NCBI GenBank assembly: GCA_003511885.1
Contig: DOIX01000078.1
Span: 1-22,550, forward strand
Source: Cyanobacteria bacterium UBA11153
GTDB lineage: Bacteria; Cyanobacteriota; Cyanobacteriia; Cyanobacteriales; Coleofasciculaceae
DNA length: 22,550 nucleotides
Direction: 5' to 3'
In this document: in pieces, positions 866-8,021 of the stretch
Layout of the letters: every line of letters starts with the position of its first letter
How positions within the stretch are numbered: position 1 is the stretch's first letter
Notes under the pieces: model-generated
Database searches by the model: none
What the model was told of the DNA's origin: nothing
Seen by the model: only the letters and a program-made list of their open reading frames with translations
Translations under genes and position numbers: made by a program

Positions 866-967
866 ATGGCTCTACTCAATCGCAAAAATCCTTTCACAGA
901 ATTTGGTTTGAGTTGTGGTGTAATGACATTAGTGCCAGACATCAGTCTTATTTTAGCAACGCCCTAA
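866..967 (+). CDS. Possible 33-residue small protein
   Basis: A short frame starts with ATG after a good ribosome site (GGGGAGA at 854-860, 5 nt spacing). A perfect TATAAT lies at 812-817, about 50 nt upstream, but I see no matching -35 box. The product begins MALLNRKNPF and ends with a moderately hydrophobic stretch of about 15 residues. Its stop overlaps the stop of the convergent gene at 964. It sits in an otherwise empty spacer (638-963). It could be a real small protein or a chance frame; initiation signals are the only support. Confidence 0.28.
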   Translation: MALLNRKNPFTEFGLSCGVMTLVPDISLILATP

Positions 968-1488
968 TTAAATTTAATAGTTTGTACTGCTTCATTAAAA
1001 ACAGGTAAATAGCGATCTTTATCTTCTGTTTTCATAATGGCAACCAAACCACATACAGCCCTGTCTAATTGCAAAGTTAATTGGTATTGAGTTACTGGTA
1101 TTTTAGTTTCTTTCTCGATAAAGTTAAAAATGTCAATTCTCGCAGGATGATGATTGATATTGCCCAATCTCTGCTCTAACATTTCTAGAGGTTTCCAGGA
1201 ACTATATTCTGCTTGTTCTTTCAAAATAATTTCTGATAATTCTTGATAACTATTCTCATGATATTCAATTTCTGGAATTTGAATAACTTTAATTGTTATA
1301 TAAGGTGAATATGGCTCTCCAAGAGATTGAAAATATATATCACTTGGAGAGTCTGCATCTTCCTTACTTTCCTGATACCAACCAATGGGCAAAGTAATAG
1401 AAATACCTGTTTTTTTACTAGAAAACTGTAATTTATGTTCGGAATTATTGAAAATGTCCATAGTTTTAAATCTTGATAATTTTGCCAT
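964..1488 (-). CDS. DcrB/PsbP-fold-like protein, possible cargo chaperone
   Basis: A 174-residue cytosolic protein without a signal peptide. The layout resembles the PsbP/DcrB (DUF1795-like) fold: an opening strand around FSSKKTGISITLPIGWY (residues 23-38), a central strand run ending ITIKVIQIP, a helix ELSEIILKEQAE, then an N-G/N-HHPAR turn, and a closing helix with YLPVFNEAVQTIKF. Assignment is by pattern, not by search. It starts 72 nt after the lipase-like cargo gene on the same strand, so the two are probably co-transcribed. DUF1795 proteins of the Eag group are known chaperones of type VI effectors with hydrophobic segments; the same role here is inference. Residue 10 is also a Met, so the start could be at 1461; neither start has a strong ribosome site. 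Confidence 0.6.
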   Translation of the reverse strand: MAKLSRFKTMDIFNNSEHKLQFSSKKTGISITLPIGWYQESKEDADSPSDIYFQSLGEPYSPYITIKVIQIPEIEYHENSYQELSEIILKEQAEYSSWKPLEMLEQRLGNINHHPARIDIFNFIEKETKIPVTQYQLTLQLDRAVCGLVAIMKTEDKDRYLPVFNEAVQTIKFN

Positions 1489-1560
1489 CTTACCAGCACT
1501 TAAATGGTACTGGTAAGGGTTTGAGCGATATGGGAGAAAATTTTACTCTTTTTTTCTCTA

Positions 1561-3450
1561 TTACTCTCTTTTCCAACGCTTCCACAAAGCTAATGGTATT
1601 CCCGTAATTCCGCCAACAGCTCCGCCGACGACTCCACCAACAGCTCCTCCAGTTAATGCCGTAGCCTCACCGAATAATGAACCCAAACCACCACCGACTA
1701 CTTTAGCACCGCCTTTGAGTTTGTTGAGGAATCCTCCTTGTTTCCAATTTTCGACTCCCTCCGTTGCTAATTCTTTTCCACCACTAGCTAATGCCCTACC
1801 TGGAGAAGAGCCGATATTAACACCTTCAGATAATCCTTCACCTGCTCCTTTAACAGTATTGTAAGCACCTACGGCAAGTGTTCCACCTACTCCTCCAGCC
1901 AAACCACCAGCTAATGCCGTAGCACCACCAGCTAATACCGTAGCCCCACCGAATAATGAACCCAAACCACCACCGATTACTTTAGCACCGCCTTTGAGTT
2001 TATTTACGAATCCTCCTTGTTTCCAATTTTCAATTCCTTCCGTTGCCAATCCTTTTCCTCCTTTCGCTAATTCCATTCCTCCAATTGCTAATGCTCCTCC
2101 TGGTGCAGCCAACTCTCTGGCACGTTCTGTGATAAATTGAGTACCTGCAAAAGGATTATCATCATACATTCCTACTTTTTCATTGACACCAATCTGTTCG
2201 CTTTTTAGATCAAATGCTTCACGGGCATTTTGATCGATACCAACTTCTTCTTGTTGTTGTTTAAATGCCTCATCTTGCAGTAAAAATTTTGTATGATTTC
2301 CCGGCCCACTGCTCTCTAGATTATGTAAATAAAATTGAGCCTTTCCTTCCCCAGTGTATAAACCTGAACCACCAAGATGCTTACCTCCAGCCAGATCCAC
2401 AATATCACCTGTGGCAATGTGATGAACCATTTCTGGTCTTTCTTCCTCTGGAATATTGTTAAATTGTCTAACTTGTTCTTGACTAATACCAGGGGCTTGA
2501 AAGGTGACTGCTTTCTGAATGGAACCGGGGAAAGCAGAGGCAGCTTGTTGAGCTAATGCGCCGCCTAAACTATGCCCCGTAACATCCACTTTTCCTCCAG
2601 CTCGACTGATTAAATTCTGCACTTCCTCTTGTTTGGCTTTAAATGCAGTAAAACCAACAGCAATTGGATCTAAATCAGCCATAACATCCCCTGCTTTATC
2701 AGGCTCAGTCCCTTTAAAAGCTAAAACAGGTGTTTTCTGAGAACCTTCTTTAGGCATTAATAAACCACAAAATAAACCACTACCTTTTACTGTACCTATC
2801 CAATTTTGTTGATAGCCTTGACTGTCCAGCCATTTTCCCGCTTCTGCTGATATTCCATCTTGACCATCGTAGGCTAATTTATGGGCAATTAGTTCGTAAA
2901 CAACATCTATACTATCAACTTTAGATGCTGCATTTTCATCGATTAAATCTCTCTGAATATCAGAAATATCTCTCTGAGGCTTCATTTGCAGTTTCGCCTG
3001 CATTTCCTCGTCTGCTTCTTCTTGACGCTGTATCGACTCCCCTTGAGGTGACTGAGCTGTTGCAGGTGAATTGATTTTGTCTACAACCTCAGCCGCTACT
3101 GTATCAGCTTCCTCCTCATACTTATCCCCAGGTTCCCCAATCGTCAATTTTGCTTGAATCGGTGCAAATGGCGCTGGCGCAAACAGCGGAATACTCGCCC
3201 CATTGTAACCAAATGTTTCGACTTTATCCTGTGCTTCGGGTGTCAGGGGTTGTACTTCTGATTGGGATGATTTTTGAATAGGAGTGGAAAAGGGGCGGGT
3301 TCGCAATATATCATCAGTTGTTGGCAACTCAGTACTTCTGCCTTTTTTACCCTTACTAAAGCCACGAGATTCCATCATCTTTGGCTGGGGCTTCGGGGTG
3401 AAAGCTGATGCGCTAATATCTTTCCTGCTGATATGCTTGCGGCTACCCAT
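1561..3450 (-). CDS. eCIS-type cargo protein with class 3 lipase domain
   Basis: A 629-residue protein in three parts. Residues 1-145 form a basic, Pro/Ser-rich leader ending in KLTIGEPGDKYEEEAD (101-116), a sequence typical of proteins carrying DUF4157 that are loaded into extracellular contractile injection systems. Residues 180-395 look like a class 3 lipase: oxyanion-type AFKGTEP (244-250), nucleophile motif GHSLGG (Ser294), candidate acid in GDIVD (Asp349/352), candidate His386 in GNHTKF. Residues 450-629 are glycine-rich and hydrophobic, with two copies of a 41-residue unit and a basic KRWKRE end. The DUF4157 metal site itself is absent. There is no signal peptide, as expected for cargo loaded in the cytoplasm. 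I infer a phospholipase-like effector acting on membranes. No sheath, tube or baseplate gene lies in this window. Confidence 0.78.
   Translation of the reverse strand: MGSRKHISRKDISASAFTPKPQPKMMESRGFSKGKKGRSTELPTTDDILRTRPFSTPIQKSSQSEVQPLTPEAQDKVETFGYNGASIPLFAPAPFAPIQAKLTIGEPGDKYEEEADTVAAEVVDKINSPATAQSPQGESIQRQEEADEEMQAKLQMKPQRDISDIQRDLIDENAASKVDSIDVVYELIAHKLAYDGQDGISAEAGKWLDSQGYQQNWIGTVKGSGLFCGLLMPKEGSQKTPVLAFKGTEPDKAGDVMADLDPIAVGFTAFKAKQEEVQNLISRAGGKVDVTGHSLGGALAQQAASAFPGSIQKAVTFQAPGISQEQVRQFNNIPEEERPEMVHHIATGDIVDLAGGKHLGGSGLYTGEGKAQFYLHNLESSGPGNHTKFLLQDEAFKQQQEEVGIDQNAREAFDLKSEQIGVNEKVGMYDDNPFAGTQFITERARELAAPGGALAIGGMELAKGGKGLATEGIENWKQGGFVNKLKGGAKVIGGGLGSLFGGATVLAGGATALAGGLAGGVGGTLAVGAYNTVKGAGEGLSEGVNIGSSPGRALASGGKELATEGVENWKQGGFLNKLKGGAKVVGGGLGSLFGEATALTGGAVGGVVGGAVGGITGIPLALWKRWKRE
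1660..2061 (-). repeat. Two-copy internal repeat in the lipase tail
   Basis: Residues 464-504 (1939-2061) and 557-597 (1660-1782) of the lipase-like cargo protein match at about 35 of 41 positions, with a spacing of 93 residues. Both contain ENWKQGGF, NKLKGGAKV and GGGLGSLFG. The DNA is also very similar, so the duplication is fairly recent or is kept alike by conversion. Confidence 0.85.
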
Positions 3451-3757: not shown

Positions 3758-4033
3758 TTATTTTTTACCAAGAATCTTGTCATACTCGGCGTGCGATCCT
3801 AGCCAAAACCACACTATTTTCTCTTCGTCGGCTTTCATCACTCCCAACGCTCGCCATCCTATTCCTATTCTGACTGACCAAATGTTCTCTTTGGGCTTAA
3901 GTTCTTTAAATTCTAAACTGGGATGGAATGGATTCTGTTTCCAGAGTTCGTAGTTCTTCTTGGCAGTTTCTTTTATTCGCGGAGGCAATTGCGCAAATTT
4001 TTGCTGAAAATCCTTAGTTCTAGACGATCTCAT
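3758..4033 (-). CDS. RelE/ParE-superfamily toxin
   Basis: A 91-residue basic protein with the layout of small RelE/ParE toxins: an N-terminal helical hairpin (DFQQKFAQLPPRIKETAKKNYELW), then FKELKPKENIWSVRIGIGWRALG, then a last strand IVWFWLGSHAEYDKIL. The Arg residues in the middle strand and the His/Tyr in the last strand are where this family usually places functional residues. Its ATG overlaps the stop of the upstream antitoxin gene by one base (TAATG), and a GGGAGGAG ribosome site lies inside the antitoxin gene, so the two are translationally coupled. Whether it cuts mRNA or acts on gyrase cannot be read from sequence. Confidence 0.85.
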   Translation of the reverse strand: MRSSRTKDFQQKFAQLPPRIKETAKKNYELWKQNPFHPSLEFKELKPKENIWSVRIGIGWRALGVMKADEEKIVWFWLGSHAEYDKILGKK

Positions 4034-4436: not shown

Positions 4437-5373
4437 TTATAGGGGATTTTTTTTGTTACTCTGCGGGAAGCAAGCATCGACGTATGGTTTCATTTGCTCT
4501 GTGTAAGTGCGTTGAACCCTTGGCAACACGCCTCCATTCTGCTGCACCACACGAGTCAACTCATGGGCAATCAACTCCTGCCCCCCGACTCCCCGGATCG
4601 TAAGCCCCCTGCCGAAAGAACACATCCTGCCCCGTCGTAAACGCCTTCGCCTGAATCGATTGATTCAACTCATCTGACTGAGCATCCGTATGAACTTTCA
4701 CCCCACTAAAATCTGCCCCCATCGCCTGCCCCATTGACTGTTGCAATCCCGCATCTAATGGCTGTCCCCCTCCTCTGGCACTATTAATCGCTGAGTCCAA
4801 ATCCACAGAGGCTTCCCCTCCCCCAATGGCTTCCCCTTCCTTTTGGATTAACTGAGGTTGGATGTCTTCCTCTGTTTCTTCTTCCTTCCGTTGCAGTGCA
4901 GAAATCTCTGGTTGAGCCTGGACTTCCTCTGTTTCCTCTTCTGCTTGTCGTTGTACCGACTCCCCTTGAGGTGACTGGGCAGTCGCAGGTGAATTGATTT
5001 TGTCTACAACCTGAGCCGCTACTGTATCAGCTTCCTCCTCATACTTATCCCCAGGTTCCCCAATCGTCAATTTTGCTTGAATCGGTGCTGCTTCTGTAGG
5101 CCCGAATAAGGGAATACTCGCCACATTGTAACCAAAAGCTCCTGCCTTCTCCATTGATTCTGGTGTCGGCGGTTGTTTCTCTGCCTCAGATGATTTTTGA
5201 ATCGGAGTAGAAAAGGGGCGGGTTCGCAATATATCATCAGTTGTGGGTAACTCAGTACTTCTGCCTTTTTTCCCCTTGCTAAAGCCACGAGATTCCATCA
5301 TCTTCGGCTGGGGCTTCGGCGTGAAAGCTGATGCGCTAATATCTTTCCTGCTGATATGCTTGCGGCTACCCAT
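4437..5373 (-). pseudogene. Frameshifted DUF4157 eCIS-type cargo gene
   Basis: The leader (residues 1-62) is identical to that of the lipase-like cargo protein and includes KLTIGEPGDKYEEEAD at 101-116. A Glu-rich linker follows, then the DUF4157 core (LQQSMGQAMGADFSGVKVHTDA, then AFTTGQDVFFRQGAYDPGSRG). At a run of six G (4581-4586) the frame is lost. The first frame stops at 4561 after 270 residues, while the rest of the domain (GQELIAHELTRVVQQNGG) continues in another frame to 4437. The metal motif, normally HELTH, reads HELTR (4551-4565). After the domain only about 30 residues remain, so no toxin domain is left. A one-base loss or a two-base gain would restore the frame. It is probably a decayed gene; a sequencing error in the G run cannot be excluded, but it would not explain the Arg. 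Confidence 0.8.
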
Positions 5374-6539: not shown

Positions 6540-8021
6540 TTATTCTATTTCCACATATCGATATAAATCTTCAATTTTCGGATCGGGAAACTGATGAATT
6601 ACGCGCCATAGTACCGTATAACTGCCATCTAAACGTTGATATACAGGTTGAAAAATAACTAAAATATCGCTACTAGGTGTTTTGAGGATATCTGGAAGAT
6701 TCCGGCGTTGTGCCCTAGAAATGGGTTCCCTGTTTAATACTGCCTCCGGTAACTGAAACTGAATTAATCTGACTAAATAAGTATGATTGAGAATAATGGG
6801 CGATTGGGTAGATGCTGGTGGACTAACTTGCGGCACTAAGCCTATACCATCTTTACCTGTAACGAAGCGTCTTTGATCCATTTGGATGCCATCTACTCGA
6901 GTAGGAGGCAAGTAGTGGAGGAATAAATCCCGCTGTTGGGGCGATGCAAAGGAGACATTTTCTAAATCGGTTTCGATGTCGTCGAGAGAAATTTTACCTA
7001 AATTAACGATAAAACCATAATTTAGTCCTGGTGTGGGAATCTCAAAGTTACCATCTTTAATCGCGATCGCAAATTCGGACATCATACCACTAGGACTTTC
7101 TCCTAGAGAGGCAAAGGTAAATTCCTCTGGCACGGGCGGTTTGAGGCGATTGCGCAACCGATTGGGATCCGGATTATAGGTTTGGGCGAGTAAGACGCGA
7201 GTGATACCGCGATTGGGTTGGGCGAGAAATTGGGCATACCGCTGTCTTTCTAAAGGCAAAAGTCCATAATCGCCGATATCTAAAATATCCCAATCTTCGC
7301 CAGGATCGATAATGTTACTGGCATCTGGAAAAACAGGCAATACGGCGAGGAGTTTTGCCCTAGCAGCAGTTAGGATAGGGGCAGATTCTTCCGGCGGTGC
7401 GATCGCAGGTTGGTATGGTGGTGCGGGATAATCAGCAATGGGAGTTTTTGCGGGAATACCAATGACGAGGGGTTCGGGTTTTGGGAAATCTGGTGCTGGG
7501 AATACTCTAGGTAATTTGGCAGAAGGTGTATTATAGGGAGAACTTACAGTCGGTTTCTCTTGTGGTATCGGATTAGTCGCGGTTAATCCTGCCAACATGG
7601 GCAAACGTCTCTCTAAAACTTCGATCATTGGTTTGAGTTGTTGGGTGGAAGTATAGAGAGAGCAGTAAACCTGTCGTTGAGGTAAGGTTAACTGGGCAGG
7701 AATCTTGGCATCCACTGTGCCGTTGCTACAGAGAAATTGAGGAATTTGGTATTGACTGACGAGAAATCTTTCCACCTTTCCCGAATGAAGGAATAATTGC
7801 CGCCTAGCTCCTTTTACCTGATTTTCGTCTGTACCAGCTAAGGCACGTTGCATCCAATTAATTAAATTTAACTGCTCCTGCACTAACTCCTCAGCTTCTT
7901 GCCAAAACTCAGTAGTAGCGGTAGGTTGCCCAGGGGCATTCTGAGTGTTAGCCGCTGATGGTGTCAGCAAGGCTAAGGATAGGGATAATGGTAGTACAAA
8001 GAGTAGCGAACGTTTGTCCAT
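6540..8021 (-). CDS. Large exported proline-rich protein, function unknown
   Basis: A 493-residue protein with a Sec signal peptide (MDKR, hydrophobic residues 6-20, small residues near 22-25). A helical region follows (38-145) with two cysteines (98 and 120) that could form a disulphide, then a Pro-rich linker (148-215), then a mixed C-terminal domain (220-493) ending in LDGSYTVLWRVIHQFPDP. I do not recognise a family; it looks like a cyanobacterium-specific envelope or periplasmic protein. The start has only a weak purine stretch before it. It is convergent with the Uma2 gene and is not close enough to any gene to suggest an operon. The gene carries two HIP1 sites (7063 and 7399), so it looks resident rather than recently acquired. 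Confidence 0.75.
   Translation of the reverse strand: MDKRSLLFVLPLSLSLALLTPSAANTQNAPGQPTATTEFWQEAEELVQEQLNLINWMQRALAGTDENQVKGARRQLFLHSGKVERFLVSQYQIPQFLCSNGTVDAKIPAQLTLPQRQVYCSLYTSTQQLKPMIEVLERRLPMLAGLTATNPIPQEKPTVSSPYNTPSAKLPRVFPAPDFPKPEPLVIGIPAKTPIADYPAPPYQPAIAPPEESAPILTAARAKLLAVLPVFPDASNIIDPGEDWDILDIGDYGLLPLERQRYAQFLAQPNRGITRVLLAQTYNPDPNRLRNRLKPPVPEEFTFASLGESPSGMMSEFAIAIKDGNFEIPTPGLNYGFIVNLGKISLDDIETDLENVSFASPQQRDLFLHYLPPTRVDGIQMDQRRFVTGKDGIGLVPQVSPPASTQSPIILNHTYLVRLIQFQLPEAVLNREPISRAQRRNLPDILKTPSSDILVIFQPVYQRLDGSYTVLWRVIHQFPDPKIEDLYRYVEIE

What the first reader, a model, noticed from the sequence alone, without database searches (positions are those of the whole stretch)
964..3450. eCIS-type lipase cargo followed by a DcrB/PsbP-like protein: possible cargo-chaperone pair
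Seen: a cargo-type leader, a class 3 lipase domain with GHSLGG, and a glycine-rich hydrophobic tail, then 72 nt later a small cytosolic protein with a PsbP/DcrB-like layout. Known: DUF1795 (Eag) proteins shield hydrophobic segments of type VI effectors. Inference: the small protein does the same for the hydrophobic tail of an injection-system cargo, which I am not aware of being described for eCIS.
Basis: partly seen in the sequence, partly recalled or inferred. Interest (0 to 1): 0.75.

Follow-up and report, generated by a model that had tools for sequence, protein, structure and literature searches.

The report
Likely helper for an injection-system lipase
In some cyanobacteria, a lipase carrying the tag of proteins loaded into a phage-tail-like injection machine is followed by a small gene whose product is predicted to have the fold of the chaperones that hold greasy toxin segments in type VI secretion, and the small protein's variation follows the lipase's glycine-rich tail rather than its enzyme part.

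Summary
The downstream protein (165 aa from the start its relatives share) is predicted with good confidence to have the Mog1/PsbP/DcrB fold; EagT6, SciW and DcrB structures are among the matches. It belongs to a small cyanobacterial family. In 19 of 19 genomes whose DNA I inspected, the gene lies directly downstream of an eCIS-type cargo gene: 16 lipases with a Gly/Ala-rich tail, and 3 non-lipase cargos inside eCIS operons, just before the AAA ATPase. One of 17 genomes with such a lipase (G438) lacks the small gene. T6SS immunity proteins, including those of lipases, share this fold, so cytosolic immunity is a serious rival. The small protein's divergence follows the lipase tail, not the catalytic domain: the two trees conflict, AU tests reject the swap, and the partial Mantel is 0.75 for tail and -0.16 for catalytic domain (not significant with one pair per group). 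This favours a tail-directed cargo chaperone but does not prove one: tail and gene are adjacent and could move as one block, and no complex could be modelled. My text searches of the held open library found no Eag-like chaperone described for eCIS. Verdict: new variant of a known kind, function inferred.

The parts
964..1461 (-). small gene (165 aa from the conserved start at 1461; ORF opens at 1488): predicted Mog1/PsbP/DcrB-fold protein, putative cargo chaperone
   Evidence: family of 26 proteins; AF2 pLDDT 88.9; PDB fold matches
1561..3450 (-). lipase cargo gene, 629 aa
   Evidence: PF01764 4.1e-5; leader motif; Ser/Asp/His positions invariant in 20 of 20
3031..3450 (-). cargo-type leader of the lipase (about residues 1-140), without the eCIS_core domain
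   Evidence: about 65% identical to leaders of unrelated proteins P0038, P0039, P0042; eCIS_core not found in this protein
2266..2919 (-). lipase catalytic domain as used here (residues 178-395), GHSLGG at 292-297
1564..2127 (-). Gly/Ala-rich tail (residues 442-629); proposed binding site of the small protein
   Evidence: the small protein's divergence follows this part
1945..2046 (-). first copy of the tail repeat (about residues 469-502)
   Evidence: read from the sequence
1666..1767 (-). second copy of the tail repeat (about residues 562-595)
   Evidence: read from the sequence
4561..5373 (-). second cargo-type ORF with a very similar leader; its reading frame ends inside the eCIS_core domain (profile positions 1-59 of 79), so it looks broken

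Best explanation
The small protein is a dedicated cytosolic chaperone of the lipase cargo. [quoted passage not shown] Shown here by computation: gene pairing, predicted fold, no evident export signal, and divergence that follows the tail. Inferred: physical binding to the tail, shielding, release at loading, and that this lipase is in fact delivered by the eCIS.
Against: G438 carries a tailed lipase cargo beside its CIS spike-tip gene and has no family match anywhere at E up to 1. The three operon-type members pair with cargos lacking a hydrophobic tail. G699's small protein is nearer the window group (43%) than the Nostoc group (36%) although its tail is of Nostoc type. One pair per group (n 5) leaves the tail correlation at 0.40, p 0.17. 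Tail and small gene are neighbours, so one recombination block would give the same pattern without contact. The Oscillatoria-type lipases reach a whole-protein hydropathy peak of only 0.96-1.10, and G402's 1.41. The gene is downstream of its cargo, whereas two characterised eag genes lie upstream (PMC7773334 passage). G346 has the pair but no PF04984 sheath match.
Confidence: 0.55

Rival explanations
1. The small protein is a cytosolic immunity protein: it binds and inhibits the lipase's catalytic domain so that the producer is not harmed before the cargo is loaded.
Against: It follows the tail, not the catalytic domain. Three distant members pair with non-lipase cargo. G438 keeps an open lipase gene without it, and G774's copy matches only in two pieces while its lipase ORF is open. 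No export signal is evident (N-terminal hydropathy), whereas Tli3, the one T6SS lipase immunity protein I saw described, is an outer-membrane lipoprotein (PMC9860674, abstract start in the listing).
Confidence: 0.25
2. The small protein is an adaptor that brings cargo to the eCIS AAA ATPase or spike, recognising the leader or the whole cargo rather than shielding the tail.
For: Three members lie between cargo and AAA ATPase in eCIS operons; the family is tied to cargo of two kinds.
Against: Leaders are shared by many cargos that have no such gene next to them (0 of 15 non-lipase cargos outside the operon type), so leader recognition alone does not explain the pairing.
Confidence: 0.13
3. The gene is a passenger: a small gene carried along with lipase cargo on an exchangeable block, without functional link.
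For: Tail and small gene are adjacent and vary together; similar leaders stand before unrelated cargos, so parts of these genes are probably exchanged.
Against: The pairing is kept in 16 of 17 genomes with a cargo lipase, in four family codes (f1, f6, f17, f28), while the flanking genes differ between the main groups; the fold is one used for effector partners.
Confidence: 0.07

Closest known systems
Eag (DUF1795/DcrB, PF08786) chaperones of T6SS: EagT6, SciW, EagR1
   Same: predicted Mog1/PsbP-type fold; small protein without evident export signal beside an effector-type gene; partner has Gly/Ala-rich segments with small-xxx-small spacing above the mean of shuffled tails in 20 of 20, by little in some
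   Different: partner is an eCIS-type lipase without a PAAR domain; tail is C-terminal, not N-terminal; gene downstream, not upstream; PF08786 not matched by the window protein
T6SS lipase immunity proteins of the same fold (Tli4/TplEi; PA3488)
   Same: fold, lipase partner; the tandem form in Oscillatoria-type genomes (326-330 aa) resembles Tli4, which I recall as two-domain
   Different: no evident export signal; divergence follows the tail, not the enzyme; some members pair with non-lipase cargo
PsbP / CyanoP and PsbP-like C-terminal domains of cyanobacterial Ser/Thr kinases
   Different: no kinase, no evident export signal; tied to eCIS cargo
eCIS AAA ATPase Pvc15 (described as chaperone of PVC payloads, PMC11495950, passages)
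   Same: cargo stabilisation and loading, the role proposed here
   Different: unrelated protein; Pvc15 acts through the N-terminal signal peptide

Membership tests
Eag / DUF1795 chaperone | Mog1/PsbP/DcrB fold | tested here: met
   predicted model
Eag / DUF1795 chaperone | PF08786 match above cut-off | tested here: not met
   window protein 0 Pfam families at E up to 10; best of 12 relatives scanned 22.0 bits, cut-off 27.2
Eag / DUF1795 chaperone | partner is a PAAR effector with N-terminal transmembrane helices (prePAAR) | tested here: not met
   no PAAR domain in the lipase; Gly-rich segment is C-terminal
Eag / DUF1795 chaperone | domain-swapped dimer gripping the effector helices | not testable with these tools
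   single-chain model only; tandem two-domain relatives exist
T6SS-type lipase immunity protein | paired with a lipase effector | tested here: met
   16 of 19 inspected genomes; delivery of the lipase not shown
T6SS-type lipase immunity protein | export signal for periplasm or outer membrane | tested here: not met
   no strongly hydrophobic N-terminal segment in the window protein (highest 10-residue mean 1.27); no dedicated signal predictor was run
T6SS-type lipase immunity protein | binds and inhibits the catalytic domain | tested here: inconclusive
   only indirect: divergence does not follow the catalytic domain
PsbP family (PF01789, PF18933) | Pfam match above cut-off | tested here: not met
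   window protein none; of 12 relatives scanned 7 show some PF18933 match and 1 passes the cut-off (L094, 37.4 bits)
eCIS cargo (lipase) | cargo leader shared with eCIS_core proteins | tested here: met
eCIS cargo (lipase) | eCIS_core (DUF4157) domain | tested here: not met
   absent from the window lipase; present in the relative in G402 (6.7e-31) and in P0024
eCIS cargo (lipase) | genome encodes an eCIS | tested here: met
   G000: two adjacent sheath genes, PAAR, gp25 and two eCIS_core cargos on C225; sheath also in G087 and G193, not found in G346
eCIS cargo (lipase) | physically loaded into particles | not testable with these tools
   needs particle proteomics

The most novel reading that the evidence does not exclude
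eCIS use dedicated, cargo-specific chaperones as type III and type VI systems do: a Mog1/PsbP/DcrB-fold class for tailed lipases (single, or as a tandem covalent pair standing in for the Eag dimer) and a YbjN-family class beside other eCIS cargos, so that C-terminal amphipathic tails are a second, chaperone-dependent handle next to the N-terminal leader.
Probability: 0.3. Interest if true: 0.85.

Novelty: new variant of a known kind. Interest (0 to 1): 0.68.

Why it matters
How eCIS cargos are kept harmless and soluble before loading is open: most newly verified antibacterial eCIS toxins had no recognisable immunity gene, and DUF4157 has only been suggested to act as a chaperone (PMC8213781 and PMC11297309, passages). 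A cargo-specific partner with the fold of T6SS Eag chaperones would show that two contractile systems use the same fold for effector handling, and it gives a directly testable pair. It would also tell people who load foreign cargo into eCIS that hydrophobic cargo may need its own partner.

Tried and rejected
First AF2 model from the narrow alignment A1 (16 rows) was useless, pLDDT 44; the wider A4 (37 rows, one of them a kinase PsbP-like domain, which may lean the model towards PsbP) gave 88.9.

Sequence searches of the PDB gave no solid relative for the small protein, for A3, for A4 (best 3lyd at E 1.7) or for the operon-type member. NCBIfam gave nothing for the small protein. The viral fold library gave 4 matches at E <= 0.001, three of them named as lipoproteins; not followed.

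Weak hits dropped before counting: G412 (20 bits, stop inside, no gene), G803 (kinase), and 7 A5 hits that are kinases by an HRD motif (G794, G807, G787, G755, G024, G701, G805). Other lipase hits were set aside as non-cargo. I checked 42 of their loci: none has a leader-like motif or a small-gene match, though in about 10 the lipase ORF runs out of the locus, so a leader there is not excluded. Hits for which no locus was given were set aside by weak E-value alone. G774 was left out of the Mantel and tree tests (its small gene matches in two pieces). The groups in the AU tests were chosen after seeing identities. The 20-row trees hold five pairs (P0018, P0020, P0022, P0026, P0052) matched by equal contig length, not seen on one DNA.

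Idea that the gap hairpin is a terminator: rejected, no T run.

Papers: passages only of PMC11297309, PMC8213781, PMC8651086, PMC12881460, PMC7773334 and PMC11495950; PMC9860674 seen only as a listing with the start of its abstract; the other papers listed were not opened. 'Not in print' rests on searches of an open-licence library, read as listings; subscription papers and preprints were not searched.

Full report
What is there. On the - strand the window holds a 629-aa lipase gene (3450-1561) and, next downstream, a small gene (ORF 1488-964; conserved start at 1461, 165 aa). The lipase has a leader of the kind that eCIS_core (DUF4157) proteins carry, a class 3 lipase domain (PF01764, 4.1e-5) with GHSLGG at 292-297, and a 188-residue Gly/Ala-rich tail with an internal repeat. 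It lacks the eCIS_core domain itself. The same leader, at about 65% identity, stands before unrelated proteins such as an annexin (P0039). The genome has 13 eCIS_core matches and, on another contig, two neighbouring sheath genes, a PAAR and a gp25 gene and two cargo genes.

Where its relatives are. I inspected the DNA of 19 genomes with a member: window/G000, Anabaena sp. FACHB-1237 (G087), Pseudanabaena SR411, Pseudanabaena lw0831 (G193), G346, G402, G449, G460, G427, G699, G809, G775, G780, G778, G783, G774, G671, G678, G064. In all 19 the gene is directly downstream of an eCIS-type cargo, 6-199 nt away. In 16 the cargo is a lipase; G and A make up 24-46% of the last 70 residues in these 16, against 6-21% in 15 non-lipase cargos. 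In G671, G678 and G064 it is an eCIS_core cargo without a hydrophobic tail; the next gene is a WHD+AAA ATPase in all three, and in G671 a CIS spike-tip gene (PF19267, 8.5e-51) stands on the other side of the cargo. In G449, G460 and G427 the small protein is a tandem of two domains (326-330 aa). G449's contig length equals that of the contig holding P0030, which a source names Oscillatoria acuminata. Among 15 other leader-bearing non-lipase cargos with a visible downstream stretch in these loci none has such a gene and three have a YbjN-like one.

The reverse test. Cargo lipases were sought in 386, 217 and 179 genomes, sets that overlap. Counting SR411, I found 17 genomes with one; 16 have the small gene next to it. 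The exception is G438: its tailed lipase lies beside a CIS spike-tip gene and other cargos, and the genome has no match to the family at E up to 1. The family is rare: 4 of 386 genomes in the phylum sample (narrow profile); 7 of 388 in the order, one of them spurious; 12 of 217 in one family, one of them a kinase.

Chaperone or immunity. If the protein guarded against the enzyme it should diverge with the catalytic domain; if it serves the tail, with the tail. G402 and P0052 have catalytic domains 39 and 38% identical to the window's, yet small proteins 54 and 58% identical and a related tail. The three Oscillatoria-type genomes have catalytic domains 58-59% identical, small proteins 27-30% identical, and a different tail. 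On 13 non-redundant pairs the partial rank Mantel is 0.75 (p 0.0002) for small~tail given catalytic and -0.16 for small~catalytic given tail. Three of these pairs (P0018, P0026, P0052) were matched by equal contig length only; without them it is 0.65, p 0.001, n 10; without G402 as well 0.58, p 0.003, n 9; with one pair per group 0.40, p 0.17, n 5. The trees conflict: the catalytic tree joins window-type with Oscillatoria-type (100/100) and rejects joining it with G402/P0052 (AU 7e-39); the small-protein tree does the reverse (100/99; AU 4.8e-4). The groups were chosen after seeing identities, so the AU values are descriptive. Against: G699 breaks the pattern in part, and adjacency alone could make tail and gene move together.

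Mechanism I commit to. The protein binds the tail in the cytosol and holds it until loading (0.55). Immunity is the main rival (0.25). The positions I took as catalytic are invariant in 20 of 20 aligned lipases, so the enzyme is probably active and either role would protect the producer. Nothing here shows binding, loading or delivery.

Place among the known. It may work like an Eag chaperone but is not filed as one: PF08786 is not matched, the partner has no PAAR domain, and the tail is C-terminal. Passages read in two eCIS surveys and the Pvc15 paper name DUF4157 as a suggested and Pvc15 as a described cargo chaperone; searches, read as listings, showed no paper on an Eag-like eCIS partner in the open library.

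Noticed in passing
L064:3774-4769, L067:9584-10924, L066:9502-10020: YbjN-like (PF10722) proteins directly downstream of other eCIS-type cargos: E 2.3e-12, 6.7e-6 and a weak 0.017. I recall YbjN as resembling type III secretion chaperones; a possible second class of eCIS cargo chaperones.
   Followed up: partly
L094, L095, L096: eCIS-type gene order in three genomes of one family: 142-aa protein (CIS spike tip by Pfam in L094), eCIS_core cargo, PsbP/DcrB-like protein, WHD+AAA ATPase.
   Followed up: partly
window 1489-1517: RNA hairpin of 11 pairs just before the first ATG of the small ORF; the 102-nt stretch folds with z -4.6; not a terminator.
   Followed up: no
window 4561-5373: Second cargo-type ORF with a very similar leader whose frame ends inside the eCIS_core domain; looks like a broken cargo carrier.
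   Followed up: no
L137 (G438): Tailed lipase cargo beside a CIS spike-tip gene, two other cargos and an AAA-type ATPase (the last read from sequence), without the small gene.
   Followed up: partly
window 3758-4033: ParE-like toxin domain (PF24732, 1.6e-9) between the lipase and the broken cargo ORF.
   Followed up: no
L093 (G774) 6840-7235: The small gene matches in two overlapping pieces while the lipase next to it is open: decay or assembly error.
   Followed up: no
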